64,000 nucleotides of DNA, taken from the NCBI GenBank assembly GCA_033239525.1, contig BSYO01000004.1, positions 23,722,037 to 23,786,036 on the forward strand. Direction: 5' to 3'. The notes under the pieces were generated by a model. That model was given only the letters and a program-made list of their open reading frames with translations. It did not search any database and was not told the DNA's origin. A program made the translations under genes and the position numbers. Of the stretch, positions 24,188 through 53,600 are shown piece after piece; position 1 is the first letter of the stretch, and each line of letters starts with the position of its first letter. The stretch is from Nepenthes gracilis (taxonomy: Eukaryota > Streptophyta > Magnoliopsida > Caryophyllales > Nepenthaceae).

Positions 24188-24754
24188 CTGAGCTCCGAAC
24201 TGAGCAGCCGTCTGATGGAAAAACACGTTATCGAGTATAGCAGCTCCGGTGCTTGTCTATTTAATATCTATTTATACCATTTAGAGCATGAATGGCTATA
24301 GACCCAAAAGATCTTTGTTTTCAAACCTTGTGGTGAAATTCATTTCTGGAGACAGGGCAAAGTCTTATAATAATGTTAAATTGTTAATATGTTTATTGAA
24401 AGCGTGTGGAGCATTTTGTATGAACTAATAGCAAGTATGAATCTTCTGCATAGTGTGCAAGTGTGAAATATATAGAGCATTAACATCTATTAGTCTTTTT
24501 GGTTATTGAATCTATGAAAATTGATAATAAAATATATTTAAATAATATAATATTTTATTTATTTATTTATAAATTTATAAAAATAGATGAGTATTATGTC
24601 ACCTAATAACATGAAATCTCATAGTTATTGTTGCAAGAATTACTTACTTTTTTAGGAAAAGGGGACGGACACCCACGCAATATCGTCCGGCAATGAAGCA
24701 AAAGAATAAGCCAATGTCTCATATCAAACTAATCATAATAAATCAACAATACTT
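24188..24754. other. 3' region of the MSR gene
   Basis: Tail-to-tail intergenic DNA between MSR and ACA9. AT-rich, with plausible 3' UTR sequence to about 24500. No reading frame or element was found before the ATT-core repeat that begins at 24755. Confidence 0.4.
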
Positions 24755-25277
24755 AGGTCATGTTTAGTTGCTGGAATAATGTGAAAATAAAATGAAAATA
24801 AAATTTTTATTCCTAGATAATAGATATTCCTCCATTTAGTTACAAATTTAATTGAGAATAAATATTTTCGAGAAATATTTATTCTCACATCCAACTATTA
24901 TTATTATTATTATTATATTTTATAATAATTATTATTTTATATTATTATTATTACATTTTATAATAATTATTATTATATGTTATTATTATTATTATTATTA
25001 TATTTTATTATTATTATTTGTAGTTATTATCATTATTATGTTTATTATTACTATTATTATTACTATTACTATTATCATTATTATTATTATTACTATTCCC
25101 ATCTTATTTTTCATACTATTCTATAAACCAAACAAAAGAATATTAATTTCCACCTTATTTTATTCTAACAACCACCAAATATGAAAATAACAATTCTAAC
25201 TATATTTTCATCATATTTTATTCCCTGGAATAACTATTCCATTTTCACTTTATTTCATTCCAATAACCAAACATACC
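24755..25277 (+). mobile_element. ATT-core MITE-like element, copy A
   Basis: The left end is GGTCATGTTTAGTTGCTGGA and the right end is CCAATAACCAAACATACC, an imperfect terminal inverted repeat of about 15 bp. A perfect-stem hairpin lies at about 24854-24886 (GAGAATAAATATTT against AAATATTTATTCTC). An impure (ATT)n core follows at about 24895-25095. The right arm contains CATACTATTCTATAAACCAA and CTGGAATAACTATTCCATTT, closely matching copy B. No protein is encoded, so the element would be non-autonomous. It lies between the MSR and ACA9 stop codons. Confidence 0.65.
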
Positions 25278-25490
25278 GTTACCATTATATTTCCTTTACA
25301 TTTTCAAAATACAAAGTAAATAATAATCCTTCATCTCATTCGATGAAGTATTTTATAACAACAGCATAAATAACTTGACATTATTCAGACGTTAGTTGTG
25401 CAGTGCAAATTGTGCAGTGCAAAGGGTCAGACAAAAATCGGGTAACCCAATACTCATCAGTTAGTTAAGTCAACCAAATGTAGATGGAAT

Positions 25491-28400
25491 TCATGTGCGG
25501 CATGCAGTTCTGCATCGTTGAAATGGCTTCAGGACGACCTTAGAAAGTTGAAATGGCTTCAGGACGACCTTAGATAACGGAGTCTGAGGAACCGGAATAA
25601 GTTTTCCGACAGCAGCAAGAGGCCAACTGTAAAGGAGATGTGAAATTTATTAGGATACTGAATTATTGCAATCTTCTCAAGTATCTACTTAAAAATAATT
25701 CCCTTATAAGTGAGAAATTCCTTATATGATGATGACTGGAGGTGCAAAAGTGCCATCAAGTCAGGACGAGTTGGAGCTCTTAAGAGTCCTCAATTTCTCT
25801 GACCGTGAATATTCTTTCACAACAACTTAAATAATCAGGATTGTATGATAGATTCAATATATTTTAATATGCTATTGTAACCTTAGCTGGCCAAGTTGCT
25901 ATAATAAAATCATCACCATTGGAAGTATGAGGTAGGATAAACACTGATTAAATATTATTTTCAGATTGATAAACATTGACAATAATTGATAAAGACTTTG
26001 TTATTTGAAAACTTTCTGGGTCTATGATAAATATTTGTAGGAAGCATTGGTATTTGTTTAAGATGATTGCATGTGGAAAAAAAAAAACAACAGTCAATGT
26101 ACCAACCTGATAAGGCCAAGAACCATTGAAACAAGCCATAGCTGCCAACCTAGTTTAACTGTTGAAGTGAACTTCCCAAGAAACTCGATAATTATTATCT
26201 GACGATAACAAACAGTGTTATAAGCAACAGGCAAATTGAAGGAGATGAACATAGCACAATGGGGAGAAAAGAGAGATTGGGAAAAGAGTCATTAATGAAA
26301 AATCTATAGTTAAAATAGCCAGAAAAACCCACCTGAAGCACAGCTGTGATTCCTACAATTCCCATGAAGAGGGGATTTTTAGTAACTCCCTTGAAGACAT
26401 TGATCTCGTCGGGCTTTCGAGCATTGAACTCATTGAATATCTGCAGCATAAACGATTAGTAATTTCCTTTTTTTTCAGCTCAAACCACGGATGAAAAATA
26501 TCGGATTCATCTCGGTCACAATTATATTAACATCAGACAATCAGATATATGCCGGTATTGGATATATCAGAATAAAAACAATTTTAAGAATTATAAGCTG
26601 ATAAGTGAATATTGGTCGAAAAATCAGGTATATTAGCAAATATTTTGAATACGTCGCAATATATCGTTAATACGACAATAGAAAACAATTTTATTATAGT
26701 ATTAGAAAATATCGGTATTAGATGATCCAATATTAATATATATCGGCCGATCTTTTCATCTATATCAAACAGATTGCAAACTAAGTTCCTAAATAATGTG
26801 TATTATACCAGCAATTTAAGCAATTATATATATGTTCTTTCAGATATTGAAGCCTTAATTCACAGTTGAGACTTACTTGACAGAGAACAAATGCATTGAA
26901 AACCAAAGTATTCTTAAGCTTTGTCTCCTGCTCCCAGCTATGGCCTTTAATAAATGGAAGATTCCTGCCTTGGAAGTTGAGAACAAGGAGGACAATTACT
27001 TGATACAAAGCCTGCAAGACCAGGGAAAAAAAAAAGTTAAGAACTTGAGAAAATCTTCATTTTACATAAAAATCTCTTCAAGATCACCAGAAATGGGGGG
27101 GGGGGGGGGAATTTTTTACCTGTATGATGAGGTTCCTCCACATGATATTAGTTATAAGAGGTTCCCTAAAAGATTTAAAAAACAAAATATTAGAAGATCA
27201 ACAAGACTACCACCCTCCCATCAGCTAAATTGATTCTGACCTTCGACCAACTGGTGCTCTATGCATAAGATGGTCAGTTGGCGGCTCAGTTGCCAATGCA
27301 AGTGCTCCGAGAGTATCCATGATAAGGTTGACCCACAAAAGCTGCACCAAGTGGACAGATCAGTTAACGGTGCAAAAATGTGGCAATACAGAAGAGAAGG
27401 ATGAATGGATGTTAATAGAGAACTATCTACCTGCACTGCAGTTAAAGGAATATTTCCAGAGGAAATAGCAGCCACAACATTGATTACAAGTGCTGCAACA
27501 TTAACGGTTAGCTGAAACTGTATAAATTTCTGAATATTTGCGTATACAGATCTTCCCCATCGAACAACCTGCACAGGTATAGCCTTCATGGCACTAAGTA
27601 AACAGAAAGGTCGATTTTATATGTTTCATTTTATTGAGCCACAATTCTATTCGTAGAGTAAATGCCACAAATTAAAAACAGATTCTTTCAAGCAAATATC
27701 ACAGCCTGCATGCTTGTTTGGTCAAAATAAGCAATGGGGTTGCCCCGAGCACAAGACTCTCACATCGTGTGATCTCAAGAAGGTTAGATGTATGCAATTT
27801 TATTTCTACATTGTAGAAAATCCGTTTTCACATTGTAAAAAAAAAATTAGTGTTGCGACAAAGCCTATCTTTCATATGAGCCATCTACTCCATAAGTCAT
27901 TCACTAAAATCCTGTAGATAGGAGAATGAAGATTCACCTCCATAATATATATATGAACGGAAGGCATGCATACCTTCACCACTGAAGCAAAGTCGTCATC
28001 CAAGATGATGATGTCGGAGCTTTCCTTTGCAACCTCAGTTCCCTCAATACCCATGGAAAGACCTATATCTGCCTAAGAAACAAAGGTTGAAAGTAAACCA
28101 ACTTAAGTTCTACAGAAGTAAATAGTGGAAATACAACTTCAAAAATCAAAACCATGCTGCTAATAGGTAACTTGGAGTGAGGAAATGGCCTATAGATCAT
28201 TCTTTGCTGTGGGCTTTGCCTGCATGCTTTGTCTACGATTTCCATGAGCATGTGGGCATCCATATATTATATTGTTCACGTGCAATCCACATGAAACAGC
28301 AAGACTGAGTCTATCATAAAAAGCTAGCACAGAAATGATCTTTGTTCATTGAATTCCAACAACATATAAAGATGGCATACGATCCATATAATGGATTCGG

Positions 28401-28753
28401 GAGATTGTTGTGGCCGGCAGCTTATGAAGACATTAGGATGTCAAGGACATGTCATCTACATAAGATGACTGATAACAATCTCTTGGATTGCAAAATTTTC
28501 TTTCCTTGGGCATTATAGTTGGAAGGGGATAGTCAGGAATCTTAACTTGCTTTTATACTCTGATCTACAGTTGTCGTGTGGAAACAACAAACACATGAAT
28601 AACACAAATTTCTTCTTTTGGGTGTGAATATCAGACCTCATGAAGTGCAGGAGCATCATTAGTACCGTCCCCAGTAACTGCGACAACATCCCCTCCCTTG
28701 CATAAAGCTTGCACAAGCAACAGTTTGTCGCTCGGTGAAGACCTTCCCATTAC
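25491..28753 (-). CDS. ACA9: ACA9 exons 25-33: hinge, TM5-TM10 and C terminus
   Basis: Exons are 28637-28753, 27974-28072, 27431-27568, 27241-27341, 27120-27165, 26877-27011, 26333-26440, 26107-26198 and 25491-25626. Exon 25 encodes [16 protein letters not shown], the Mg2+-binding hinge. Exon 26 encodes [20 protein letters not shown]. Exon 27 has TM5 ([20 protein letters not shown]). Exon 28 has TM6 ([20 protein letters not shown]), with the Ca2+-ligand N and D residues. Exons 30-33 hold TM7-TM10 and KLIPVPQTP. The final exon ends with SKVVLKPFQ twice in tandem. Confidence 0.93.
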
Positions 28754-29289
28754 CTACATAGATGAAACCAATACTATTAATACACAAGTTTCATGCAAAT
28801 ATCAACTACCAAGAAGCAACACTGATGGAAAAATGGGAAGCTATTAGAGTCTTCCCGTACTCATAAAATGAGGATTTCATTTTGACAACTTAGATAGCTA
28901 GAATTATAAGATATGACCAATATATTTTAATATTATGTTTTATCCTAGTCATCAAATTCAAAAAAAAGAAAAATGGCTTCAATATCAAGTGCAAGCTAAA
29001 TAAACTTGTATAACATTACCGTAAGTTTCAATAACCCCATGTTTGGTTCACGGAATAAAGGGGGAATGGAATTCCTATTCCCGCGGGAATAGGAATTCCT
29101 TTGTTTGGTTACTTTTAAACCGGAAATAACGATTCCGTGGGAATCGTTATTCCCGTAAAACGGGAATAACAATTCCCACCAATTTGGTGGGAATTGAAAT
29201 GGTGGCAATTCCTGGAATAAGAATTCCAGGAATTGTGTTATTATTATTATTTTGTATTATTATTATTTTATATTATTATTATTTATTAG

Positions 29290-29333
<44 letters not shown>

Positions 29334-29578
29334 GTATATTATTATTATTGTTATTATTATTATTATTATTTATTAGGTATTATTATTATTATTATTTTAT
29401 TTTGTATTATTATTATTATTATTATTATTAGGTATTATGATTTATTATTACATATTATTATTATTAAACATTATTATTATTATTGTTATTATTATATTTA
29501 TTATTATTATTATTTATTAGGTATTATTATTATTACTTATTATATTATTATTATTATTATTTTTTATATTATTATTTG

Positions 29579-29631
<53 letters not shown>

Positions 29632-32600
29632 TTATTATTATTATTATTATTTATTAGGTATTATTATTATTATTACACATTGTTATTATTATTATTATTT
29701 TGTTTTATTATTATTATTATTATTATTATTTTGTATTATTATTATTATTAGGTATTATTATTACATATTATTATTATTATTATTTATAAGATATTATTAT
29801 TATTATTACTTATTATTATTATGTTTATTATTATTATTATTATTATTACTATTCCCACCTTATTCCTCATACTATTCTGCAAACCAAACAATGGAATACT
29901 AATTCCCACCTTATTCCATTCCAACAACCAAACATAAGAATAACAATTCCAACTCTATTCCCATCCTTTTCTATTCCCTGGAATAACTATTCTATTCCCA
30001 CCTAATTCTATTCCAGCAACCAAACGTACCGTAAAGGAATGGACAAAGTCCACTTGCTATTAATGAAATCTTCCCCACGGGGAATACAAGGGAGAATTAA
30101 AAAAAGGAAGTACCGGAACAGGACTCAGAAAAATATGTTAATACTGATTTATTTCAGTTTCTTTGATGCGTCGACAACACCATGTCATTTACAACATACC
30201 GTTATTCTTTTTGCAACTTTCTCCCTATCCTCTTCAGAGAGTGCTCGGAATGTCTTTCCTTCAATGACAGTGGGCTCGGTAGCATCAGCATCTGAGGCGA
30301 GGATGCCACACTCCAAAGCTATTGATTTTGCTGTTTGAATATTATCTCCGGTTACCATGCGCACCTGTAGTAGTCAAACAAATTCTTTTTCATCCACCGC
30401 TCGCAATAAAGATGTTAAAAGTAAGTATATCATGAAACAATCTGTTTCACATGTGCAAAGGCCAGCTAATTTTGAAATACAGAAGACGAAAAGCAGGAGA
30501 AAGATATCATGAATCATGATTGTAGCAACTATTCATATATTTGCTACAAATCTATACATATCAAGAGCTACACATATAGCCACTAACAGAAACAATACGT
30601 AGTACATACCTTGACACCAGCATCTGTGCATAGTTTCACAGCATCTTTGACACCAGATCGACAAGGATCCTAAAAGAAGGCATTAGCAAAAAGGGGCATT
30701 TGAAACACTCCAGGGTAATTGGCACTTCTAACAGTAAAAGAAAATGGCAAGCTCATGTAGTGTCTAAAAAGTTCAGTTGAAATTCAAGATAATAGGTTAC
30801 AGCATGTAAAACTACAGATGAACAGTTGAATGCCAGAGCACATATGAGTTGTCAAATGCGTAGCCATGCATTCTGCATGGCTTATGAACTGAAAACTATC
30901 AGCACGGTTTTCCAAATTAAGAAATCAATTCAACGCTTCAAGGTATGTCATCTCCCTTTTCTTATTCCTGATAGAGCAGTAGCCTACTATCTAACCCAAT
31001 TCTTTTTTCAGATAGGATTCTCACAACTAGGTTAAATTTCTGGCAGTAGGCGTGAGAGTGTAAATTATTTCTCATTTTAGAATCAAGATACACAGGGAAA
31101 CATGAGAGCGCTGCCAAGATATCAGTAACCCTTGCAATCTAGCATCACATAAAGGTGAAACATAAAAAGTGAACGGACAAGACGACAATTACATGACACA
31201 TGATATTTCTCTCCGTAAATTTAGCATGTATATTTCTATAGTTTCCTAAACTTCCACATTAAGAACTCATACTTTCTGGGGGAAAAAAAAACAAAAAAAT
31301 GGGGACAAATTTGGCAGGACATTAATTAAATACTGCCCTCAAGATTTTTCCAACATGTAATGACAATTAAATTTACTACTTACATTTCTAATCAGTCAGT
31401 ATTCACTACTCCATTTCATAAAATTCTAGGGACTAATGATGCCATTAGGGGAGAAAACAAGTCATGAAGTACCTTTATACCAACAATACCAAGTAAAACA
31501 AGGCTATCCTCTGGGAGGACCCATTTAGCTAGCTCCTCTTCTCTGGTATTAGGAACGTTGTCCTTGTCATAAGGCTTGTAGGCAAAGGCAACACATCGCA
31601 AGCTTTTTGATGCCATGTCCTCAATAATTCCTTTGAAAGTTGACTGAAGAACACAAAACAAAAAGAAAGCACACAAGTATCCTGACTTATGTCAATCCTG
31701 CATGAAGACGCTGATCCTGCTAAACAGACTGCTAAAACTACATAGATTTTTAATTTCTTAAGCATGTGAATAGCAAATACAACAGCACTACTACTAAAAT
31801 AAGATAATTTTAAAACCTCATCTTTTCTTATGCCCATAAAATCCAAATAAATATCACTACTTAGTTCCATAAAACTCAATCAACAAGATCTATTTTTCAC
31901 AAGAAAAAAACTGAAGAATGGCAAGGGAAAGGATGCCGAAAAAAACTGAATGGTTGCATATGCAAATCATTTTCAGTGGAAAAAATACCATATATTTGAA
32001 AATGAAACATGACAAAAGTTAAAATATGCTAGGCGAAAGGATGAAGATGCATAGCAATATTTCTTCCATTTTGGCAGGACAGACCTCAAACTCCCTAGAG
32101 ATCAATCTTCTATCAAACAAAAGCAACCAAGTAATTAACCTTAACACTTGCCTTTTCATTTTCAATGGACTTCAAGCAACTATCACTGTCAATAAAATGT
32201 GTACACAAGGCAAGAACCATTTCGGCAGCACCCTTCCAGTGAATATGAACATCTGAATTTGTCTGTGAAAACAAAAATGGAAAACTCATTGTTAGACAAA
32301 TTATTGGATCACGAAGAAGTACAAGAGCCCTTTGCAAGCAAAAATCATCTGTAGCACATATCGAGCAGTTGATTCAGTACTGTACAGAGCATGGCATTGT
32401 TTCAGTTCAAAGAGATTGGATTTATCAGCCTCATGAACCATAAATTATTGAACTCTGCCATCAAGAAAACCACATCAAAGAGCTGCTTTATTTCTTCATG
32501 TTCAAAAAAACAACATTATTTAGACCCGGTACTGTCAAATTTGCATAAAAAATGAAATATTCCTTATATGAGAATTTTTTTCGTACAATCTCGGAAAGCA

Positions 32601-35600
32601 AACAGCTTGGAACAAGAAAAACAAAGTGGACATACAATTAACTACCTTGCCACAATAACATAAGATAAACAAATCCATGATAAAGCATCCCAAATCCAAA
32701 TGGAGCTTTTTCCTCTTGTCCCTCTCTAGAACAAGAAAACATAAATGCATAAAAAGGTAGCCTCCACCACCCAATAACATGAAATTATAAAATCCATGAT
32801 AATGCATCCCCAAAGATAACCATGATAATGACATCTCAAACTTAAATTTGCATAAAGAAACCACCAAAGAGATAACAAAAAAACAACATTATTTAGACCG
32901 GATGAAATTTGCAAAAAATTTGAGAATTTTTTCGATGACAAACATCTTGGAACAAGAAAACAAAGTGGACATACAATTAAACCTTGCCACAATAACATAA
33001 GATAAACAAATCTGATAAAGCATCCCAAATCCAAATGGAGCTTTTTCCTCTTGTCCCTCTCTAAACAAGAAAACCATAAAAAGGTAGCCTCCACCCCATG
33101 AAATTATAAAATCCAGATAATGCAAACCCAGATAAAAATGACAATCTCAAAAAAAATGAAGCTCTTTCTGTCCCAACCCCCCCCCCCTCCCCAGCAAATA
33201 AAAAGACAAACAAAAAACGTGCCCCTTAACTATGGAAACTGAACATCTTATTCTTTAATCAGTTTGAACTGCATGGATCAGATACAAGTATTACCTCTAC
33301 ATAAAATTTGGTACATCTATACAATACCTGCCACTGATGAAAATGTTGTTATAAGTGTCGGTCACTACCATACTGTTATTAGATGTATTGGATAATATGT
33401 ATTAATATCAAACATATCGAAAAAAAAAAGAATTTTTATGAATCGTAATTTGACAAGAAAATATTGGCCAAATATCATATGTATTTGCCATTATTTCGGA
33501 TATATCGCAATTTTGTCCCAATATCGGAAAATATTGGTATGGGGGCCGACACTGAAATATATGAGCCGATATTTTAAATATTGCCCGATATTTTATTTCA
33601 TGACACCTACAGAATACCCATAAAGCATACAGAGTGTATCAACTCTCAGTTGTGCCTTAATTATTTTCTAGATATTATATTTGCAAAGCCAACAGACTTC
33701 AGCAGAAAGGAGGTGAGACTCCTGGACACTGGTCCATTTATTACTAGTTGGTAAGCTAATGATGGCGAATTCCAGAGGAAACATCAGACAATTACTATCA
33801 GACAATTACATTTTCACGCATGGTTGTTTGTAAAACCTCCAATCAGAATAAAATAAAACAAAAAAGAAAAGGTGCAAAAAGCAAGAATACTCAAGCCCAA
33901 GACAGCAGCTGCAACCTATGCAACATGACATATACTAAGTCGATCCAGAGAGTGTTCAATACTGCCGATTCCAAGGAAACATTAGAAAGAATTCAGTGAA
34001 TTACCAGTTGCAATGCCACACCACATCGCTTTTTTTCTGAGTTGAAAGGAGAAACATGGAGAACTATAGCTTCTGATCTAACAGTATCAAACTTCATGCC
34101 CAGCTGCATTAAATATAATGGCTAGCTACATTTAGATTACACAAAAGTATGCACCATATTTTGAAAAAAATTCCGATGTGCAGAAAGAGGATACCTTGAC
34201 CCCCCAAGATAAGATAGCCTTTTCTGTGGGAGATCCAGAAACTTCTACATTGCCACCATCCTATCAAAGGGATTACCATAAGAATAGAAACCAAAAACAA
34301 CGGAATCAAGAAAATTATTCAAGATCACTTTGGTAATTCTTACAAGGAATATGATAAAATAGCAAAATATTGGAAATTGCAATTGAAGAAAGAAAATTCA
34401 TTTTGAACTGGAAAAAAATTTCAACATTTATTCTGATATATTTATTTATATATTCATCTATTTATTTTTAGATCATTTTTTAAATCAAATAAGCTATAAA
34501 TTGTGGTAGGACACACAAAATAACCAACCATATAGTGTAGAAGATAGACTAGTTTACAATTAAGACATCAAGATTGATACATCATCCACAATTATTTATT
34601 AGTTGACACAAACAACATCTATAAGCAACACAATGTTAATAGTAAAAATCCTAACTTTTTCATTTTCCATGCCAACTATTGAAGGTTAGGAATATCTATT
34701 GACATGGACTTGCTGGGGCTTGGGTTGAAATGAAGAATGTTTATTGAAATTTTACTACTGACCCAATTCAGGAAACAAATAGAGGCCGTGTGAGATATAT
34801 ATGGGCCAAATTTATTTCCCCATTGCCTCCTGGACAAATGATACCTACAACTTTCAATGACAAGAGTTATTGTGAACATCCTCTGGAATTCGTTGATACT
34901 TGCCAAAAAAAAAAACATAAAAGGTTATAGGTTACTTGCACTAGAAAATGTTGAGTTATTTGTAAAAGATTAGTGGGTTATTTATTGAGTGTTTGGTTTA
35001 CTTCTTGCATCTTCTAGACTCCAGATTAGCGCACAACTAATAAGGCTACCTGGCAATTATTTTAGCTGCATGCCTTCAAGTTGAAGATCCTGGAGCCCAG
35101 ACGTTCTGTTGGAGTTTGTGTTATTTATATTTCCTAGTCATGAGCATTTATTTTGAGAGATTATGTTTAGGACTTGTTCCTATTTTTACGGCACTGTATA
35201 ATTGACGGTTTTATTTTGGGATTTTCGAGGAGTATCTATGACATTGTGGATGTTTTATTATATTGTGATGTTGATTTTTGGAGACAGTGTGACGGTTTAG
35301 GTCCATAGTTGTTGACCAGGTGTGTGTCGCTACAGCTATGTTGTTTTTTTTTTTTTTTTTTTTTGGCCAGCACTCTTGAAAAGCAGAACCTCATGAATGG
35401 CTCAACTTCCTGAGGAAGTAAATTGATCATAGGTTCCATAGAAATGAAACATGGACGCTTACATCCCTCCATCCATATGTAGATATACCATATTCAGACA
35501 AAAGTAATGAGTATATCAAAACCAAGTGTCTGATGTTTTTGCTCTTTCATTCAACCCTCCACCCCAATGTGTTCATCTGATTGTACGAGCAAATAAATCT

Positions 35601-38600
35601 AAAATTAATCCATGAATCTATTGAGATCAAGATGACATATACCAAACACAACATTGAACAGAAAAAAGAAGTATGGGTCAATAAAAACCACTAAATAATG
35701 GCTCTCTATAAATCACCACTAATCTCAGTTTCGGTCATACAAAGACAGAACTAAATCAATTACTGCCAACATACAGAATCCACCAGTAGATTTTTGGCCT
35801 CTAAATATATCAACTGACAATGGAATTTGCATCTTCCAGATAGATGAAGAAATAGTGCACAGTCATTACTACAATTTCTAAGGCATATACCATTATTATT
35901 CCATTTTATAGGTAGGTAGAATGGTGAATCATATAAGTGAACAATCCATATTATCCCCTAGGCTGTAGGTAAAAGCCAAAGTCTATGTGACTGTAGTTTG
36001 CAGACAATTCTTACAAATATTTCCTATTTCTAACATTTAGAGCAGATTAGTTAAATCAAACCGTAAGGATAAGGGTATAGCTGAGATGAGATAAGTATAA
36101 TTAAAGCAGGCAACTACTAAATTATTGGTGCGAATCTCATTTCTAAATGCTGGTAACTGTAGATCCACAACTGCATCATGAAATTTGTAATATTGGATGT
36201 AGATCAGATCCCTTAAAGATACTCCTACTGAATGAGTAATTGATAAATAGGTCTAAAAGCAATTTTAGACCATATGTTCTCAATCAAATAACCCTACTCA
36301 TACACCCAGGACATGCAAAAGAATAAAGATTGGAAACTTAACAATTGAAGCTAATATTTGAAGCAGCTTTGTAAAAAAAACTACAAAGCTAGTCATAAGC
36401 ACAAATTTTCACAGTGTAATGGAGGATCTTTTCAAGTAAAGATTTGACATTCATCTTTCAAATGTCAAGGGAAAAAATAGAACTGTTTCCAATCCTCAAA
36501 CTTAGGAATAAGATGAAAACAACCATATCAGGCAGCTGGCCCTGCAGAGTCCAACAAACTCATTAAACTGCTTTAGCATGTATCTGACATTAAGCAGCAC
36601 TTGTGTAAAGTGCAAATGATAGAAAAATGGACTCTTTATTCTACTTGGATACAATCCACAAACATTTTGTTGGGTACATACAAAATTAGGCAACAAGAAA
36701 GAAAAGTAAACAGCATACCTTTGCCAGAAAAACACTTCCAGTGGTATTTACTGCAATGCCCTCAATGAGCAAAGACAAAAGCTCTCCCTGCATCTGCAAT
36801 GGGTCTCCAGGAGGATCCAACTTATTTTTTCCAGCATAGGCCTCAACCACAGTCATCTATAAGATGGAAAATGCCAAATACAATTCAAAAATTGAATGTA
36901 ATCTCCTCACTATATACAGAAATAGGTTCATCTGTGCTCTAATCTTATAAAAATTGCATCTCTCAGCATATTTGGGGGAAAGTGATCACATACATTCCTA
37001 AATATTTTGGTTTTAGAAAAAGGGAAAAAAAAAAAAAACAATAGCATTGTAGATAGAAAATAGGATAACACATAAAAATGGATAATTTGGGAACAGTGCA
37101 CTTCCTATGGAAATATTACCCGATTCGAGGTCAATGTTCCAGTTTTATCACTGCATATAGTAGTTGCAGAGCCCATAGTTTCGCAAGCTGATAGCCTTCT
37201 CACCTGCAAATGCACTAGTTTTAATAAATTTTGTCACTGCAAGGACAGAAATTTATGTGGTTTCATATGCATTCTAAAAATCTGCAAATGTTAGGAGTAG
37301 ATATCAGAAATTACATACCAGAGCCTTGTCAGCCATCATTTTGCGCATTGAGTATGCTAACCTGTCATGAAAATAACAAAATTGGAATCTCTCAGACAAC
37401 AATGAAGAGTAAGATGAAGATTAGTGACTCATGAAGATTCAAACACAGTTACGTTAAGGTGACAGCCAAAGGAAGCCCTTCAGGGACAGCAACAACCACA
37501 ATGGTGACCTAAACAGCAGTACAACACTGCAGTTAGTCATGAACTACAAACAGATGAAGTCAGAAATCCTGTAAACCAAACTTACTGCAATTGTAACAAT
37601 CCCTATCACTCCATCAACTGCTTCGTTAATACAAGTTTGACCATGGACAAATTGAACACTTCCATCTTCATTCTTCGTTTTACCAGTAAAATATCTGCAA
37701 ATTTTCTCATGAGAACACACAGATTAAGATCGAATTTGTAACACTGCAGTGACTGCACACAACATATCAACTGATAAATAAATTACCGGGCCAACAAGAC
37801 AGCCAGCACAGAAAGAGCAACTGAAAGCCCAACTATGCCTATAAAAGTCGCCACCCCATTTAGCCGGACCTAGCATAGGCAATATGAAACAGACTAGTTA
37901 AGAAAGCATAAATGTTAATGGCGACCACAATAAGCAGCCTCTGAGAAGATAGGAAGAAACCTGCAAGGGGGTTTCTTCGCCAGTATCTTCAGAGATACTT
38001 GCCATCAGTAATCCCCACTCAGTGTTGATTCCCACACCAGTTACCTACAGACAATTAAAGAAAATAAATATTCCTCAAAGAAACCATGAGGTAAATGAAT
38101 ATTTTATTATCACTTTATGTGCAAACACACAACTGAGACAGCAATAACTTCAAAGAATATAATGGGCCACAGAAAGGTAGGAAATTCTTGCTACACCTTG
38201 CCTCAGTTTGACCGTCACATTGGAGTTTTTCTTTTTGTCCAAAAACAAGAGCTACTTTTCTACATATTTAATGCTACTTCTCAAACTTCCCTCTAGGCCT
38301 CCATTCTTATTGCATGTGCAAGGTAGCCCCACAAAACCTTGTATACGTGGGCTAATGTACCACAGGTACCACCATTACAATGATGCACTATGCAATGAAT
38401 TCTTGTTCGATAATTTGAACCATTTTGTTCAAACCACAGCCGTCACATCAGTATAGGGAAATTTAGTAGAGATGAATTTGATATGCATGAGGGCAAGAAG
38501 AAGATCTAACGTGCATGCTACAAATCATCAAGAGAAAACCCCAAGCCAGACAACTAATTGAAGAACAAGCCCTTAGAGAAGCAGCGGAAGATAAAAGCAC

Positions 38601-41600: not shown

Positions 41601-44600
41601 TATATATATCTACGTCCCGACGAGGACTATTTTCGAAATTTGGACATTTGTTTGGATTTGGATATTTGATTTGAGTACGAGACTACCATTGGATTTTGAA
41701 ATTTGGATATTGGATTTCGGTTGAATTTCTCTTAGTGGCGATTTGGATTTATTCTGAAATTTGATTGGATTTTCATCCATTTGACATTTCCTCTGATTTA
41801 TTGGACTCCTTTTGATTAAATATGATACTTGTTGGGTATTAGGCTCATTTTTCTGTTTTGTCCCTTCAGAGTAGAAGCTTCAGATGCAGTACAGGAGTAA
41901 AGACGTAATCGGTCAGATATTCATCCGATTTGGTGAATTTCAGTTTTATTATGGTTTATATTGATATTTGAAGTATCTGGATTATGGAATTGGCTGGATA
42001 TGAGCTTATTGTTATATTTCGGGAATAGTTTGAATATCATGTTATATTTGATTATGATTGTTAGGTCGGATTATTACCTCCCTTACGATGATTGTAGAGC
42101 AGATCGTATTTATATTATCCGAATGGTTGTTCGATGAGGTCCTGTGAGGATTTTAATTTTGTTGAGTTGTATATTTTGGTTTGTCACACCCGGATTTTGG
42201 GACTTAGTATTATTCGTTTAAAATTATTTGGGATTTTAGATTTTAGAAATTATAATTAATTATTTAAATTGACCTGCTTGGTTCGGGTTCGTGACAGGTG
42301 ATATACCTCTTTACGGTGTCAAATGCTCTCTAGAAAACAATAAATTAATTGACAATAGAACTAACAAATATCACCTAGGCAGTGCACTCAACCAGTAACT
42401 ATCCTCAGCTAAATCAACTCTTTCACACCTTTTCTAAGTGAAAGAGAACAATACTTCATACCTTAGCCCTATCTATCTCTTCACACCAGGCCCTGATTTT
42501 GAACTTCTCATTCATTATGTCTCTCTTACCCTTTGTGGAATACATCATTAAAAAAAAGCCGACAAACAAATATTATTTAGCAAAAAGAGCACAAAAATCA
42601 ATACCAATACCTGTAACAAATATCACGAGAAGCAAAGCAAGAGTGATGCTGCCCCCATCATACCATCCTTCCTTGAGACCCTAAGAGCAAGAATTAAAAC
42701 ACAAAAACTCAGTAAATAGTGAAAAGAATTTAGATTTCTTAGCCAGGGTTGCCACGAAATTCCAGGCACAAGCACCTTCATTGACGTCCATGAAGGCTTT
42801 TTAACATTAACATAATACGGAAAATTTACAAGGTTTCCTTTTTCTTGCAAAAGTGATGGCAGTCTATCATTAGATGAGCACGAGCTCTTATTGAACTCCC
42901 CCAGCTCCAACCACCGCCAATAAAACACAAAACCGAAATTTAGCACAACTTTTTTCACATACATTGTTAAGTAAAATCAATAAATGTTTTTATTGATGGA
43001 TAATGTTGTGTTCCATCTCACATCGTAATTAAATGTACAAGGAGGCCATATGTGACGTAATAAACAACAAGAGTCCTTTCCTTTTCTTCTGCCTAAGTGA
43101 ACTCAAAGGGCATAAAGTGGCTTGATTGCTTGGTGTAGCCTCTTTAGGCTCAGGGTGTGACATGAAGTAAAATCAAAATGCATCTTCTTATTTAGAAGTG
43201 ATCCTGAAATAGTCCTACACTGCTACTGGAAGTTCATCGCATACAAAATATCTCCTCATATGCAAGACCATTCCTTTATACTTTATCTATGACCTTTTAC
43301 TTTCTGTTCCCTCACAGCTAATGCAACAGGTTTAAAAAGATGACCTGCAGACCATGTCGATGCCACACAGTAAAGGTAATTATAATGAGTACTGTAGTTA
43401 TAAAAGGATAGTACTACTCATAGAACAGCATAAACAATGAAGGCACAACTTTAAGGAGTAAGATTTCCAAGATTACCACAGTTTTTATCCCAAATGCTAG
43501 TGATGCAATTGCAGCTACAGCTAAGATGATGAGTGTTAAATCTTGCCAAGCATCCCAAAGAAAGGTCTGCAAGACAAATAGCCACAACAATCATCACTTG
43601 ATGAAAAATAATAACTCTGAAGTACACTTAAGAAAACAGTACATAGTACATACAAAGAAACCCTTTCCTTTCTTGCGGGGATATGTATTTGATCCAAATG
43701 CATTTTTTCTATCTACAAGATCTGCATCTGCCCCAGATATTCCTGTCTCCAGGTTTGTTTTCAGCAAGCCTGCTAACCCTTTAAGCTGAAACACACAACA
43801 TTTGAAATAGGAAACTCAAAAAACATAGAATGCATTGTAGAAGAAATCATGCCATATACTTACACCCCCATGTTGATCTAGAGCAAAAAAATCACGATCC
43901 CTGGTCATTGAAGCAAGCTGTTCAAGTTCAATCCCATAATCATCGGTTGAAGGTAGTGCAGACGCACCAAACACTGAATGTAATTGTGAAACATTAAAAA
44001 AAAAGAAAAGAAAAGGAAAAAGAAGAAGGCAATAACGAGCAGCCTATTAACATAAGAGCAAAATATTACAAAAAGAAAAGATCCACCTTTGACAAGCCCG
44101 TAACCCACAGTAAAATACAAATCTACTTTTGCATTAGTTATCTGAATTGTACTGTAAACCAATATCATCTCTTTATATCAAAATAAGCTATCAGTATGAA
44201 GAATCTCGGAAGTAAAAGTAGGCAGGAAATTTCCAGAGACTTACCAATTTCTTGTTGCCCAGCCAATTTAAAAAGCAATGCTGCCTAATGGAACATACCA
44301 ATTGCAAATTAGATGTTCCAAGGAAATTAAGTTCAAGTACAGAAAACAAAATGGGCAACCACCACAAAAATCTTACTCTAATGACTTGTGCATGTGATCT
44401 GATCATCCTCCTCCTTTGCTCTTTTCCTTCCGCTTTCTTCAAATCCAGTGTGTACCGGAATCGACGGGAAGCATTTAGCACCAGGGCTGCTTGCTGAAAG
44501 GATCAAAAATTTTGGTATTGTATGTCATTGTCTGCTTCAAAATGTCAATCACTCATCCAAATGATAAAGTCTAATCAGTGTATTCAAAACACGGCACGGC

Positions 44601-47600
44601 AAGGAACAAATGCATGACAAAAGTGTAAGCAAAAAACATATTCTGGACACTCCTCTAACAGGTTCAACGTTCACAATAAGTGGTTCTTGACATTGTATCA
44701 AAGTTTCTTTGACCGATGTCTAGAATTCAAATCCTAGTAGCCCCTTGTCAAAGTTACAATTCAGCACATGCTAAGGGTAGGCTTATGCTAAATTTAGACT
44801 TCAGACCCTCTTGGGCATTTGCATGAAAGGGCATTGTACAATATAAACCTATTCTTGGCTGCATACCACACTACTTAAGCTTTTGGAATGAGTGATACCA
44901 CAATAAAATTTTATGTATACGATCAAATGCTTATGCTCTCAATGTTAAAAGCTGGACTAGCCAGCACAAAATTTGTTTCCACAAGACATAATGATAGCTT
45001 AAGTACTTAGGGCCTATTTGGCTTTACTTTTGGTACAACTTTCGGAAAAAATTATAAAATAGATTCTTCCGCAAAGCTTTTTGTAAAGAATTGATTAAGG
45101 TTCCCCATAAATTGCTTTGGATTTTATACAAGTTCCAATTCAGAACATTTTTGAAAACACCCCAAAATCGCTTTTCAAAATCAATTTCAAGCACCCTTCT
45201 AGTTCCATGAAGAGAGAACCCATGAAGCACTTCTCATTATCAAAGACTCAGAGAAAATTTCTCAACCACATTGCAGCCCCAAAATACCATCTTTCTTTCT
45301 TCCTTCCCATCAATAAACTGCATAAATTCCAAGAATCCCATGATACTGATGTCAAAACTGTGGAGTACAGATTCTGATTTGCTTGTTTAAAAAAGAGGGC
45401 AATCCAATTCACAATATTCCCATATCGTGGAATTTGACAAAGGTTAGATGTACATAGAATTATCCTTGATTAATTAATATACTGTGGAAATCAACTACCA
45501 AAAAACTCACAATCAAGTTCACAGAAGCACATTTGTTGGACAAAAAGTGAAGCCAAAGGGAAACGAGCATTAACCATGGTTGAAAATATCAGCCGATTCA
45601 TCTCGATATTGGAAATATTTATCGTGATATGTGCCATGATGGTAACATATTGCAATATCTCACCCAATATATTCGACCAAAATTTTTTTACAAAAAACAA
45701 CCTTCAATTATTAAAGTATTTCTCCACACTTTCCAAGATCACTCATAGTTTTCCCACTCATCATCCACACGGGTAGATGCCAGAGAGCTTACGATGGAAA
45801 GAAAGGGGCAAAGGTAGTTCTTCTTCCTCTTCAAATTTTTCTCAATTTCTTCTTTCTTCAAATTAAATACAAATTATTCAAATATACACCTTAATCCTAT
45901 AATTTTAAATATTTTTAACATTCCAAATTCTCATATTTTTGTCGTAAATTTGAGGTTATTTGTGAAATTGTTTGAGAATGAAAAAAAGTAAATTGTTGTT
46001 TTAAATCAGTTTTCTTATTGTTATTGCTTGATTTAAACAAATCTCTTAAAAATTTTCAAGCTCGAAATGAGATCTAAGATTTTATTTTGAAAATCCTAAA
46101 ATTACATCTAAGATAAATTTCAAGATCTATTCAAATTTATATCTAAAATTTATAAATCTATGTTGTAAAAATTTAATTTGCACATTTTTGTGGTGAATAG
46201 TGAATTTTTAGATTTTTTTATCATTTTGTTAATTATTTTTCGAAAACAATTTATTAGATAAAGCTACAATATTGTGGGTAATACCAGTTATTTATAAATT
46301 TTAGCACTTTTTATTTAAATTTCTGGCTTATTATTTTTTTTTTTATTAAAAAACAAATCTAATTAATTTTATACCTAAAATTCATAGATCTATAGTATAA
46401 AAGATTAATTCAGCAAATTTTTATATTGAAAAATGATTTTTTTTCATTTTTCTAAAAAAATATTTATTTAAAAAAACTTCTTAAAGATTCATTATTAAAT
46501 AAAGTTATTGTTGCATTCTCGGATTTGGATTGTGATACGAATAGGAAGATACTAAATTTTGTCCGTCGAGTGTCAAATATGTTCGGTCTCTGTATGCTCT
46601 TAATCTGAATCCTGTGTAACACAAAAAATCACAATCAAAAAATTGGCGGGATTCACTCCCCGTTATATCTTCCGACATTCAAGTCAATATCGTCCTTATT
46701 TTAAAAAGGAGAAAAAGTGGATGTCAATTTAAATGGAATGCGAATAAATTATTTGTATTTGTCAGGGGAGTTGCACTTTTTTAGAAAGCATCTCAGTATC
46801 AGAGAGGCAGCGCTAGACAGTTCTTTTTCTTCTCCCAAAAAATTGTCCTCCTCTTGTTGGAGAGAAGAAGTCTTTATTGGAGTTACGACGCAGTTGACTT
46901 TTCCTGTCAATTGCCTAAAAAACCAACTAGCGAATAAGACTATGCCCAGGCGACACTTACGATTGGCATTCGAAGCCGTTTAGATAAGAATGGAAAACTA
47001 CCTAGGCAACTGACATTAATTTTCCCTTTATTCAAGTCGTCGGTTGAATCCTTAATTTGGGCTCAATGAGAATATTGGGCCCCCAAACTTCATGGGCTGA
47101 ATACGTGATATGGGTTTTTCATATTTAACCACCGGTAACGATACCCATTATTAGCTCCCCATACCAGGACGCCTGAAACTCAGCCATTTGATATGATGTC
47201 TAAAGACAATCTTTTCCCAAACCCATGCTCTTAATCTGATAAATGGCAATAGCTATCTTGAGGACTTGCTCTTAGTCTGATGGCTGAGAGCATCTGTCCA
47301 AGGACTTACACTTAATTCGATGGCTAACAGCATTTGTCCGAGGACTTATACTTAGTCCGATGGCTAACAGCATCTATTCGAGGACTTACACTTAGTCCAA
47401 TGATTGACAGCATTTGTCCGAGGACTTACACTTAGTCTGATGGCTAACAACATCTATCCGAGGACTTATACTTAGTCCGATGGCTAACAGCATTTGTCTG
47501 AGGATTTTCACTTAGACCGATGGCTTTGATGCGCGCCCCCAACAGATGCATTAAATGCAAGTCCCTTCAATTGTGACGTCACCATGGAAATGTAACAACC

Positions 47601-50600
47601 ATCACTGTTCCATGACCTGTGAGAGGCTAACATGTGCCTTGGCCATGATGATGAGGTGTGTCTTTTCAATTTCTCCGCCGTTTAAATTAATCCCTCATAT
47701 TTATTGGGATTAATTTTGATTATTGCTTCCCTCTCTCTCGAACGCTTCAATCTTCATTTTAGATTTCATTCTTCTTCCTTCCCAAATCATCCTGCAATGG
47801 CTCCCGAAGTGAAAGATATTCACTCCACTCTTTCCCATGATGAAGTTGAAACCATTCGTGCTAGGTATAGGATACCGAGCATGACAGTGTTTTTGTTGCT
47901 TGGCGCTGATGATAGGGCATGCACCCTTCCAAATGGGTCTGTCACTGTGTACGAAGTTCACCTAAAGGGGGTCTTCGTTATCCCATGGCGCTGGAGCTTT
48001 ATCTAATCATGAAAGCTTTGCAAGTTCTAGTGGCCAGGTTACAACTTAATGCTGTGAGGTATTTGCTTTCTCTTTGTGTTTTTGCACGTTGTCATAGCCG
48101 AGTTTTGGATATTACAATTGTAAAGGTTATTTTGAAATTTTCTCATGGGCTAGATTGGATTGTAATTTTCCCTTACCCAGAATTTGATATAAGTTGAGGG
48201 AACCCAAATTCCACCAAGAGATGAAAAAATAAGTATTTCTTTCTTGTTGTCCGCCCTGAATGGGGTATATCAAATAAATCGGGTAACGTAGAGTCAAATT
48301 TTTGCGCTGAAGCATCTAAACAAGAGAAGGAAGCGGTGAAGGAATTCACCGACTTGATTAGGGCTAACTTCGGTTCTTTTAATGAGAATAAAAAGAACCG
48401 ATGGTTGACGAATGAGGCCTTTGAAAAGGCCAAATGGGAACCTCAGCTTGAGGGTTCAGGGTTATCGATATTTCTCTAGCAAAGAAGAAGAAGAAGTTGA
48501 AGAGAAAAGAAAAGCCACTGAAAATTAGCAAACTGTCCGATAAAGAAGCAAAAAGTTATCGGATGAAAACATCTAAGCGGCCGAAGACTACCACAGACTC
48601 TGCCTCCTTTGATGACGATGAAGCCGTCATCGGCCAATTAGTGAGGTGGACAAGATCATTAGGAATGGCCTCGTTTTAGCATGCTGAGGCGGTCGAGCCT
48701 TCAATGCTTAGTGAATCTGTTGCTCATCCTCCTGTGACTAAGGGCATAGATGTGGTGTCACTCGTCGTCAATTCATCTTTTGAGGAGCCCATGCTTGACC
48801 TTCAGACTCTTTTCTGAAGAGATCTCGGATTGGATTGCTGATAATTTAGCCGAGGATGTAACTAAAAATCCGATCGAGGAGGCAATTGAAGCTTCGGCCA
48901 AAGTTGTTGAGGCCGAGGACTTAATGAGGGCTACTAAGGTGCCTAGTTCCAAGCTCCCTTTGTCCGAGGTCTCTCAGGATGCCGTGGCCATTAGTGATAT
49001 AGAAAGATCTAGGACATCCTCTAAGGTTCAGGTTGAGACTGGGACCAAGGTATTCATAGAAACAGTTGAGCCCTCAGTCTCTAATGTTCCAAAAGTGGCT
49101 CCTAAATCTGAGGCTGTTATTAGATTATCTGAGGCTGAAGAGGTGGCTATTGGGGTGGATACTGTATAGTTGACAGAGCATTTGCACTCTGAAGCCCAAA
49201 GAGGAGAAAGCTCATCATCAGGGATTTCTTCTCTATCCAAGGTATTTTATCCAGAATGAACATGGTTCTATCATTTCTTCTTTGACTAACATTCTGCCGA
49301 CATATTCTTCCTCTTTTTTTCTAAAGCTAAGGGATTTGATCGGTCAACGTTCTCCAATAATCAATCAAATTGCCAAGTCTCATGTGAATGTGGAAATATT
49401 ACAGGCTTCAAAAAAACGCGCCAACCGTCTTGAGCATGAATTGGCTGAGTCTAAACTTAAAGTCTCCTCCCTAGAGGATTTATTGAAGGACCAGCTGCAT
49501 CAGTATTCCCTTCTCAGAAATAGGAACCTTCAACTTGAGGATGAGGATGAGCTCAGAACCTCTGTTAAGACCGAGGACATCAAACTAGCATTGGAACGAA
49601 AGTACTGGGATAGCATCAAACTCTACAGGAGCATAATAAGGCTTATGATTCCGAAGTTTCCTCTTTCTTTATTTCATCTGAGGAATGCTAGTGTCTAATG
49701 AAAAGCAGATTTGATTGGCTGTCCTAAAGAGGATGACGTTCTTAACTCTCCTTTGCCAGGATCTTCTAAACCTTAAAACTTTTTTTTACTTGTAATTATT
49801 TCTCAATAAATGAAGATTATTCCTTCTTCAAATGATGCCTTCTCTCTTTTTATCTTGGTTCACGTGAGTATGTGCTGGTTAGCCAAACACTTTAGATGTT
49901 AGACCGTAAATATTACTGTTATAGTTAACTCACGACTTCAGCTCCTCGGATTGACCGATGAATGTTAAAGTATTCGTGTGTTTAACTTAAGCTTTTCTAA
50001 GACCATGTTCAGCTAACGATGTTATCTCAAAGGTCTTTACATGCGTACTTTTAAGTAAGCCCCTAAGTTTTTCAATTTTCAGCCGCATTTGGACCACTCG
50101 ATATTATAACCAAGTTTTAACTACCAACCTCGTGTGGGTCGCTCAGTTACGTAACTAAATTTCTTGACAACTAAGTTGTTTATAATACAAGTGAACAAAA
50201 TTCACTTGACTTAATGGCAGCCTAGGTTATGGAATTTCATGAAATGATACGCAAGAATTCAAATGAATGTACAACAAAGAATAAACAAATAAACGAAAGT
50301 TATCTTATTAATTAAACATGATACAAGCACTCTAACTTATGCAACTAACCTTACCTAGCTACATGCATAATTACTGATTAATATTTTTGAGGTAAGAGGT
50401 GTAACAATTTCGAGGGACTTCCCAAATTGTATGCCCCATTCCGAAGGATGGCTCAGACTAGGAATGACCCCTCCCAAGTAGGGAAAAGCTTATTCCGGTC
50501 GGTATTTTTGCCAGTTGCTTCAATACTTCGCAATACTAGGTCCCCCACTTTGAATTAGCGTGCTTTCACCTTCTTGTTATAATATCTGACAACCCTCTGT

Positions 50601-53600
50601 TGATAAGCTGCCGTCTGCAATCGTGCACTGTCTTGAGTTTCTTCAAGTAGATCGAGATTTTTTCGAAGCCTTTGTGAATTATTGTTCAAATCAAAAGATT
50701 CGACCCAGAGACTGGGCAATCCAATCTCTATTGGAATTATGGCCTTGGCCACGTAACATAAATTGAAGGGTGTCTCACGAATTGGCTCTTTGAGTGTCGT
50801 CCTAGCTCGTTCAGCGAGGAGCTCCTAGCGTTCCCAAGCTTCGTCTTTAAGCCATGTAGTATTGTGCAGTTGGTAACTTCTATTTGTCCGTTACATTGTG
50901 GATAAGCGGCCGAAGTGTGAACCGACTTTAACTTTAACTGGCACAATACTTCACGAAACGTTTGCTGATAAATTGGGTCCCGTTATCAGTTACAATAATT
51001 TCAGGGATGCCAAATCTACATATAATATTTTGCCACACGAACTCAGTTATGTTCTATTCGGTGATTCTAGCTAATGGTACAGCTTCGACCCATTTTGTGA
51101 AATAATCAATTCCGATGATCACAAACTTACTTTGCCCTGAAGCAACCGGGAAGGGTCCAAGGATATCGAGCCCCCATTGTGCAAATGGCCATGGGGTTTG
51201 CAAAGTTCGAAGTTCTGTATGTGGTTGATGGGTTAGATTCTCGTGTACCTGACAATTTTCACATTTCCGAATAAAGTTCATAGCATTATTCTTCATGGTG
51301 GGCCAGAGATATCTTTACCTTATCAGCTTAAAAGTAAGATTCTCGCCTCCGATGTGAGATCCGCAAATACTGAGGTGTACTTCTCCGAGAGCGTAGTCAA
51401 TGTCTTCTGGCGTGGGACACTGTAAGTATGGGACAGAGTACCCATGGCGGTACGGTTAACCATTAATAACAGTGTATCAGCCTGCTCTATTTTTTTTACT
51501 CGCCGGGTTTCATCTGAATTTTCAAGCAATGTGCTTTCGAATAAGTACCTTAAGTAAGGGGTCATCCAGTTGTCCGCATTGGTTATCTGCATTACTTCTG
51601 GCTCTGGATCATCTATATTGGAAATTTCAAGAATTTCACGCATTCCTTGAGTGTACTGTTCTGGGTTCCTGGCCGCTGTTGCATTTGACAATAAGTTGTC
51701 TTTCCCGTTCTCTTCTCTTGGAATATAGATAAACTCCACATTTTCAAATGCAGAAATCAAATTTTTGACCTTTGAGAGATACTTGGAAAGCTGTGGGTTG
51801 CAAGCTTTGAAATTTCTTGGACTTGATTAACAATTAGCTCCGAATCACTGTAAACAATTAGGTTCTTGTCTGAATATTCTTTTGCTAGCCTAAGTCCCGC
51901 AAGTAAAGCTTCACATTCTGCAACATTATTGGTTGCTAGAAACCCAAGTGTTATTGAGTATTTTATCTCTGAACCATCGGGTGTTTTCAGTACGATTCCG
52001 GCTCCACAGCCTACTCGCATTGATGACCCATCCATGTGTAAAGTCCACACTTGAGTCTTTGGTGAATTATCAACTTGAATAAGGCCATGTGGGCTGAGAG
52101 CTGAAGTTGTTGTTTCGACAATGAAATCTGCCATGGCCTAGCCTTTCAAGGCCGACCTTGGTCGGAATTCTATGTCAAATTCACCGAACTCAATAGCCCA
52201 TTTGATCAATCGTCCTGACATATCCAGCTTTTGTAATATTCCTCTTAATGGCTGGTTGGTTAGGACGATAATCTTGTACGCTTGAAAAAACAATATAAGT
52301 TTTCAATCAGAATACACAAGTGCCAAAGCCATCTTTTCTACGTGAGAATATTGAGTTTCTATTTCGGTCAAGATCTTGCTGATATAGTATACAGGTTGTT
52401 ACCTGTCAAACTGTTGTCGAATCAAGACCGAACTTAATGTTGTCTTAGATATGGCCATGTACAAATATAGTTCTTCACCTTCTTGAGGAGAGGTTAAAAG
52501 CGGCAGGTTCGAGAGATACTTTTTGAGATCTCAAAATGCTACTTCACAGTTGTTCGACCATTGAAAATCATTTGCCTTTGGTCCTTTCAAGGCTTTGAAG
52601 AAAGGTAGGCACTTCTCGGCCGACTTAGACAAGAATTGGGATAGTGCTGCTAGCCTCCTTATTAATTTCTGGACTTCTCTCATAGTCCAAGATGAATTCA
52701 TATCAATAATGGCTTTGATCTTTTTTGGGTCAGCTTCAATTCCTCGATGTAAAACAATGAAACCCAAAAATTTTTCTAAAGTTACAATAATGGTACGTTT
52801 GGTGAAAATGAATAAGGTAGGAATAGAATAGTTATTCCAAGGGAATAGAATAGGATGAGAATAGAGTTAAGAATTGTTATTCCCATATTTGGCAGTTGGA
52901 ATAGAATAATGTAGGAATTAGTATTCCATTATTTAGTTTGTAGAATAGTATGAGAAATAAGGTGGGATTAGTGATAATAATAATAATAATATTAAGATTA
53001 ATAATAGTGACAATAGTAATAATAATATTAATAATAATAGTAATAAAAATAAAAATAATAATAGTGATAATAATAATAATAGTGATAATATAAATAATAA
53101 TAATAATAGTGATAATAATAAATAGTAATAATAATAATAACAATAATAATGGCCATGGGAATAATTATTCCTACATATGTGGGAATAAAAAATACTTAAT
53201 AAAAGGTGATAATTTTTACTCCCACATATGTAAAAATAAATATTTTCATGAGAATATTTATTTCCGATTAAATTATAACCAAATGGAAGAACATTTATTC
53301 CACTTATAATAATGAGGGAATAGAAGTTCTATTCACTCCAACCAAACGCAGGCCAAATGTACACTTTGTGGGATTGAACTTCATATGATGTATGCGGAGG
53401 ACATTAAATGCCTCGTTCAGATCATGAATATGGTCGTCAGCCATTTTGTTTTTGACGAGCATATCGTCCATGTATACTTCCATATTCCGTCCAATATGAG
53501 TTTCAAACATTTTGTTGACAAGTTATTGCTATGTGGCACCGGCATTCTTTAGTTTGAAGGGTATAACTTTATAACAATATATCCCTTGATCGGTCATGAA

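What the first reader, a model, noticed from the sequence alone, without database searches (positions are those of the whole stretch)
24755..53354. Element family with short inverted ends, a hairpin arm and an expandable ATT core
Copies at 24755-25277, 29035-30030 and 52792-53354 share an asymmetric plan. One end is rich in hairpins, the centre is an ATT microsatellite of very different length (about 200, 600 and 180 bp), and the other arm is conserved around GGAATAACTATTCC and CATACTATTCT. The ends resemble GGTACGTTTGGTT and its complement. The orientation differs between copies, and one copy interrupts a retrotransposon, so they moved. A transposon that carries and spreads a growing microsatellite would explain many long ATT loci in such a genome.
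Basis: partly seen in the sequence, partly recalled or inferred. Interest (0 to 1): 0.8.

Follow-up and report, generated by a model that had tools for sequence, protein, structure and literature searches.

The report
Jumping element carrying an ATT repeat
This pitcher-plant genome holds a large family of short jumping DNA pieces that carry a stretch of repeated ATT inside them and bring it to new places, but they seem to account for only a small part of the genome's pure ATT repeats.

Summary
The window comes from Nepenthes gracilis. The three copies (24756-25278 +, 29035-30031 +, 52791-53354 -) align outside the core. They belong to a family whose right-arm 20-mer matches 1,915 genome places, against 6 for the reversed control. 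Ends are ~14 bp (GGCCATGTTTGGTT / CGGTACGTTTGGTT type) and 34 of 42 copies have identical 3-bp duplications, 31 of these TTA or TAA: PIF/Harbinger (Tourist-like) MITEs, not hAT.

The ATT core is inherited, with interruptions shared between copies in two patterns. Two of 20 arms sampled by position have a long non-ATT interior; upstream of one (L092) lie PIF/Harbinger transposase pieces (PF13359), a candidate parent.

The wider claim fails for pure arrays. Of 13 consecutive (ATT)10 arrays on C1, 1 has an arm. None of 10 fetched 3' flanks of (ATT)23 arrays has one, though one (L102) shows a core mark of the family. The family supplies roughly 9% (2-17%) of pure (ATT)10 windows. Growth with age was not shown. 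Empty sites could not be tested.

The parts
24753..24755 (+). c1 left target-site duplication TTA
24756..25278 (+). c1, complete element of 523 bp (left arm ~140, ATT core ~200, right arm ~183)
24896..25097 (+). c1 ATT core
25279..25281 (+). c1 right target-site duplication TTA
29032..29034 (+). c2 left target-site duplication TAA
29035..30031 (+). c2, complete element of 997 bp; lies between exon-like pieces, read on the minus strand, of what looks like a P-type Ca2+-ATPase gene
   Evidence: HAD-hydrolase Pfam E 5.6e-4, below cut-off, on 28634-28753, no Pfam match for the piece at 30188-30373; the Ca2+-ATPase name is recalled
29035..29237 (+). c2 left arm, five predicted hairpin stems of 8-14 bp
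   Evidence: DNA folding z -10.9
29238..29853 (+). c2 ATT core with TATTAGGTATT and ATTATTACATATTATT interruptions (second core pattern)
30032..30034 (+). c2 right target-site duplication TAA
52791..53354 (-). c3, complete element of 564 bp inserted in a Ty3/gypsy reverse transcriptase; flanks in element orientation TTT / TTA, so the duplication is not identical
52974..53150 (-). c3 ATT core (AAT on the + strand)

Best explanation
The three copies are non-autonomous PIF/Harbinger (Tourist-like) MITEs. A PIF/Harbinger transposase supplied in trans by longer elements that end in the same right arm recognises the ends, cuts the MITE out and inserts it at TTA/TAA, duplicating 3 bp. Where the long element has its own interior, the MITE has an ATT array, which each transposition carries along. 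Afterwards the array changes length copy by copy, through slippage and duplication of longer blocks. Shown: family, ends, duplications, shared interruptions in the core, two core patterns, and a long element with transposase pieces and the same right arm. Inferred: that this transposase moves the MITE, how the ATT array arose, and the mechanism of length change.
For: Right-arm 20-mer at 1,915 places, control 6. 34 of 42 copies with identical 3-bp duplications, against 34% when left and right flanks of different copies are paired. ATT core in 42 of 42 (c1 plus 39 copies found with it, a query that contains the core, so biased, plus c2 and c3). In 20 arms taken by position from exact arm matches on C1, 15 of 20 have a core of at least 100 bp, 13 of 20 a detectable left arm, and 8 of those 13 equal duplications. 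Shared interruptions: of 62 right arms, 21 adjoin a core edge that holds one 23-mer exactly; a second mark, ATTATTACATATTATT, occurs in c2 (1 of 42) and in 10 of the 20 sampled by position. L092/L094: PF13359 pieces (E 2.7e-8; 2.2e-4, the latter below cut-off), a Myb_DNA-bind_3-like piece (E 0.027, below cut-off), then the right arm (154 bits) with an exact end and TTA. c2's arm is 92.4% identical to L092's, and L092 groups with 9 of the 11 copies that carry the second mark.
Against: No left end of the long element was found within ~5.4 kb of its right end, so shared parentage rests on the right end alone. No empty site was seen. 8 of 42 copies lack identical duplications, c3 among them (the script misplaced the left end of c3 and L034). 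Of 20 sampled arms, L089 joins unrelated DNA, L077 and L085 lack the left arm and L087 lacks the right end. The core patterns are not clean: L084 and L087 carry marks of both, and L082 and L088 have the second mark but fall outside the L092 clade. The arm tree was read without support values.
Confidence: 0.9

Rival explanations
1. The MITE transposes preferentially into, or next to, existing ATT microsatellites (Micron-like targeting), so the arrays belong to the host.
For: Micron-like MITEs are described as sitting in (TA)n microsatellites in rice and pineapple (PMC12550479 passages; PMC8449440 abstract and Discussion).
Against: The array lies between the two arms and inside the target-site duplications, which are in non-ATT host DNA. 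Interruptions are shared between copies at different places.
Confidence: 0.02
2. Arms brought together by chance around independent ATT arrays, or arrays that each arose on their own inside separate copies.
For: Core lengths range from 22 bp (L076) to 616 bp or more, and long cores are scattered over the arm tree. L070 has an ATT array at a different place in the element.
Against: The core edge next to the right arm is one exact 23-mer in 21 of 62 arms, and both arms with the core share one duplication in 34 of 42 copies.
Confidence: 0.04
3. A member of hAT or another superfamily with similar TTTGGTT ends.
For: TTTGGTT-like ends also occur in other plant families (recalled).
Against: 3-bp duplications rather than 8 bp; PF13359 pieces in the related long element.
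Confidence: 0.02

Closest known systems
Tourist-like MITEs of the PIF/Harbinger superfamily
   Same: Length, GG..GTTTGGTT ends, 3-bp TTA/TAA duplication, relation to a DDE_Tnp_4 transposase (family features recalled; tests).
   Different: Carries an ATT array as its core.
Lepidopteran MITEs with hitchhiking (GTCY)n microsatellites (Coates et al. 2011; seen only as a mention and citation in PMC9659126)
   Same: A MITE that carries a microsatellite to new sites.
   Different: Another repeat unit and another host; that paper was not read.
Micron and pineapple Ac-mMITEs (PMC8449440, abstract and Discussion)
   Same: Abundant plant MITEs tied to microsatellites.
   Different: Those are flanked by (TA)n because they insert there; here the array is internal. 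Ac-mMITEs are described as Mutator-like with 9/10-bp duplications.
Tetris / TIR-220 of Drosophila virilis (PMC4079207, passages including the abstract) and Xmix/miDNA4 MITEs of Xenopus (passages and citations in PMC9659126)
   Same: DNA transposons that carry and seed internal tandem repeats.
   Different: Other hosts and, for Tetris, ~220-bp units; superfamilies not compared here.

Membership tests
PIF/Harbinger (Tourist-like MITE) | 3-bp TTA/TAA-type target-site duplication | tested here: met
   34 of 42 identical (31 of them TTA or TAA), cross-pair rate 0.34
PIF/Harbinger (Tourist-like MITE) | Short terminal inverted repeats of GG..GTTTGGTT type | tested here: met
   14-bp ends GGCCATGTTTGGTT or CCCCATGTTTGGTT / CGGTACGTTTGGTT; superfamily consensus recalled
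PIF/Harbinger (Tourist-like MITE) | Related element with a DDE_Tnp_4 transposase sharing both ends | tested here: inconclusive
   L092/L094 share the right arm and end and carry PF13359 pieces; left end not found
PIF/Harbinger (Tourist-like MITE) | Myb/SANT-like second protein in the long element | tested here: inconclusive
   PF12776 E 0.027, 15.8 bits, below the cut-off of 23.6
PIF/Harbinger (Tourist-like MITE) | Empty sites with a single TTA/TAA | not tested
   the queries did not complete
hAT | 8-bp target-site duplication | tested here: not met
   3-bp duplications
Micron / microsatellite-targeting MITE | Element flanked by the microsatellite | tested here: not met
   array is internal; the flanks printed are not ATT arrays
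Source of most long ATT arrays in the genome | Arms beside most long pure ATT arrays | tested here: not met
   1 of 13 (ATT)10 arrays; of 19 (ATT)23 arrays listed on C1, 1 is family copy L083, 10 had a 100-bp 3' flank read and none holds an arm (L102 has a core mark), 8 not read

The most novel reading that the evidence does not exclude
ATT arrays may have formed inside this PIF/Harbinger lineage more than once. The two core patterns have different interruptions. The L092-type long element groups with copies of one pattern; L086 falls beside a copy of the other, though its best arm matches are of both. L070 has an ATT array upstream of a long-element-type junction, so at another place. If so, loss of the coding interior in this lineage tends to be filled with ATT, which would make the birth of a microsatellite inside a transposon a repeatable event.
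Probability: 0.15. Interest if true: 0.65.

Novelty: new member of a known kind. Interest (0 to 1): 0.4.

Why it matters
It is a well-delimited plant case of a microsatellite carried by a DNA transposon, with many copies, two core patterns and a candidate transposase source. That allows array length change to be measured against insertion age, with arms as a clock. It also suggests that most pure ATT arrays in this genome have other origins, some of them in other repeat families.

Tried and rejected
hAT was rejected by the 3-bp duplications. Insertion into existing ATT arrays was rejected because the array is inside the duplications. 'Most long ATT arrays are this family' was rejected for pure arrays. 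'Core grows with age' was not supported: in the 42 copies, 40 of them c1 and the copies found by similarity to it with its 200-bp core, core length fell with arm divergence (rho -0.50, p 0.0007), so the sign cannot be trusted. A count of core edges within 2 mismatches of the c1 motif (50 of 62) was dropped because a pure ATT run is itself only 2 mismatches away; the exact count, 21 of 62, is used instead. My first look at the ten (ATT)23 flanks used four marks that did not include the second core pattern; one search added it and found it in L102.

The left-end finder misplaced the end in c3 and L034 and in L088 and L091; these count as non-matching duplications. L038 and L041 have unusually short left arms (34-35 bp) by this finder. 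A genome search with the c2 right arm did not complete and was replaced by the 20-mer pattern. A transposase family search (PF13359) did not complete.

Literature: no listed title or abstract start describes an ATT-core PIF/Harbinger MITE; (the last: Nepenthes + PIF-Harbinger) returned no paper. Only the top rows were listed, and most subscription papers are not in that library. Passages of PMC3027094 and PMC12244726 were seen and not used.

Full report
Setting. The window is G000:C4:23722037-23786036 of a 752.5-Mb genome in 133 contigs. An EXO70 protein from the window matches Nepenthes gracilis at 97%, on a contig whose length (29,479,088) equals that of C4, so the host is this pitcher plant.

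The three copies. c1 (24756-25278 +), c2 (29035-30031 +) and c3 (52791-53354 -) align outside the core. Cores are 200, 614 and 177 bp. Right arms are 80-85% identical in pairs. Left arms are homologous but more divergent; those of c2 and c3 fold strongly (z -10.9 and -6.9), that of c1 weakly (z -2.3). c2 lies between exon-like pieces read on the minus strand that resemble a Ca2+-ATPase (name recalled; one piece has a HAD-hydrolase match at E 5.6e-4, below cut-off, the other no Pfam match). c3 splits a Ty3/gypsy reverse transcriptase.

The family. A genome search with c1 scored 40 of 3,820 first-look candidates, and these gave 87 matching pieces. With c2 and c3, 42 copies were read (c1-c3, L002-L008, L029-L060). 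34 of 42 have identical 3-bp duplications: 31 TTA or TAA, and one each of TAG, TGA and CTA; pairing flanks of different copies gives 34%. The ends are ~14 bp, GGCCATGTTTGGTT or CCCCATGTTTGGTT on the left and AACCAAACGTACCG on the right. Those are PIF/Harbinger (Tourist-like) features (recalled). A right-arm 20-mer at up to 2 mismatches occurs 966 + 949 times, against 4 + 2 for the reversed control; 38 of the 42 copies meet that criterion. Mean pairwise divergence of right arms in the 42 is 14.5%, minimum 7.0%, and the arm tree has long terminal branches. I infer an old spread rather than a fresh one, with the caution that the set was chosen by similarity to c1.

The core. All 42 have an ATT core of 148-614 bp, but c1 as the query favours that. 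For a sample that does not depend on the core, I took 20 of the first 21 exact arm matches on C1 (the other was already L056). Of these, 15 of 20 have a core of at least 100 bp, from 119 to 616 bp; L076 has 22 bp with both arms and equal duplications; L093 has 65 bp; L086, L089 and L092 have none. The core is inherited with its interruptions. One 23-mer at the edge next to the right arm is exact in 21 of 62 arms. A second pattern is marked by ATTATTACATATTATT, found in c2 (1 of 42) and 10 of 20 sampled by position, and by TATTAGGTATT-type marks, found in c2, L048 and L059 of 42 and in 7 of 20 fetched stretches. L084 and L087 carry marks of both. The 11 copies with the second mark have cores of 145-616 bp (median 468); the 19 with only the first have 119-465 bp (median 252) (core lengths, grouped; the two groups were sampled differently). 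So c2's length is partly a trait of its kind, and lengths vary within each kind. Long cores are scattered over the arm tree, so arrays do change after insertion. The direction of change is not established.

Candidate parent. L086 and L092 have the same right arm but a different long interior, which meets the arm where the ATT core does in the MITEs; they share that interior (76.6% over 581 bp, among several overlapping matches of AT-rich sequence). Upstream of L092 (L094, L095), the strand that ends in the arm holds pieces of a PIF/Harbinger transposase (PF13359, E 2.7e-8 and, below cut-off, 2.2e-4), a Myb/SANT-like piece (PF12776, E 0.027, below cut-off), then the arm (154 bits) with an exact end and TTA. 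The pieces lie in different open stretches; whether introns or breaks part them was not examined. c2's arm is 92.4% identical to L092's, and L092 groups with 9 of the 11 copies that carry the second mark (no support values). L086 sits beside L085 in the tree, but its best arm matches include copies of both patterns. No transposase was looked for upstream of L086. The left end of the long element was not found, so L092 is a candidate parent.

ATT arrays in general. Pure (ATT)10 occurs at 32,312 + 31,340 overlapping places. The 13 arrays behind the 100 places listed (+ strand of C1) were read with ~580-bp flanks: 1 of 13 has a right-arm match (L070, 90 bits) and none a left-arm match at E 1e-3; by eye L070 also has a CCCCATGTTGGTT-like left end, and its array lies upstream of a junction like that of L092. 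L061, L064, L066 and L069 are linked to one another as another repeat family, and L065 and L067 as a further one. The 20 sampled copies hold on average 2.9 (ATT)10 windows; scaled to 1,915 copies this is 5,554 of 63,652, about 9% (bootstrap 2-17%, median 8%). For (ATT)23, with 8,191 overlapping places, the first 100 fall in 19 arrays on C1. One is family copy L083. Ten others were read for 100 bp on the 3' side: no arm match below E 1 in any, but L102 holds the second core mark and may be a broken copy, and L100 continues as ATT-rich DNA without a family mark. Eight were not read. Compound arrays over 150 bp were not measured genome-wide: all three in the window are this family, and the single degenerate one in 200 kb of sampled DNA has no arms.

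Verdict. This is a PIF/Harbinger MITE family that carries an ATT array. Transposon-borne microsatellites are known elsewhere (PMC9659126 passages). The claim that it explains the genome's ATT loci is not borne out for pure arrays. The chance given to the bold reading was raised slightly (0.12 to 0.15) after L070 was looked at again.

Noticed in passing
L061, L064, L066, L069 (C1:43750-44970, 268590-269820, 515470-516700, 941340-942570): A separate repeat family with a CTTT-rich tract followed by an ATT array; 71-76% identical over 267-659 bp in the four pairs found.
   Followed up: partly
L065, L067 (C1:473960-475170, 527590-528810); by eye also L072 and L103: Another repeat with an ATT array followed by a shared GC-richer stretch; L065 and L067 are 78% identical over 247 bp.
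   Followed up: partly
L070 (C1:1068430-1069650): A copy with a family-like left end, unrelated inner DNA, an ATT array, then a junction like that of L092 and the right arm: a third arrangement.
   Followed up: partly
window 46509-47148 and 56423-57044: Direct repeats ~9.9 kb apart (81-84% identical) on either side of the gypsy reading frames; probably the LTR pair of the element that c3 interrupts.
   Followed up: no
window 47260-47525: 40-bp minisatellite, 6.7 copies.
   Followed up: no
window 20027-20476: 225-bp tandem duplication, 86% matches.
   Followed up: no
window 272-773 and 1240-1722: Near-identical duplicated blocks (94-98%) about 0.95 kb apart.
   Followed up: no
window 7370-9607 (-): EXO70 gene read as two adjoining open frames (Exo70_C split between them); the database protein is 711 aa, 97% identical to the first frame.
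   Followed up: no
L095 (C1:26337380-26338900): Long GT-rich tract and a GGCCACGTTTGGTT-like end in opposite orientation upstream of the transposase pieces.
   Followed up: no
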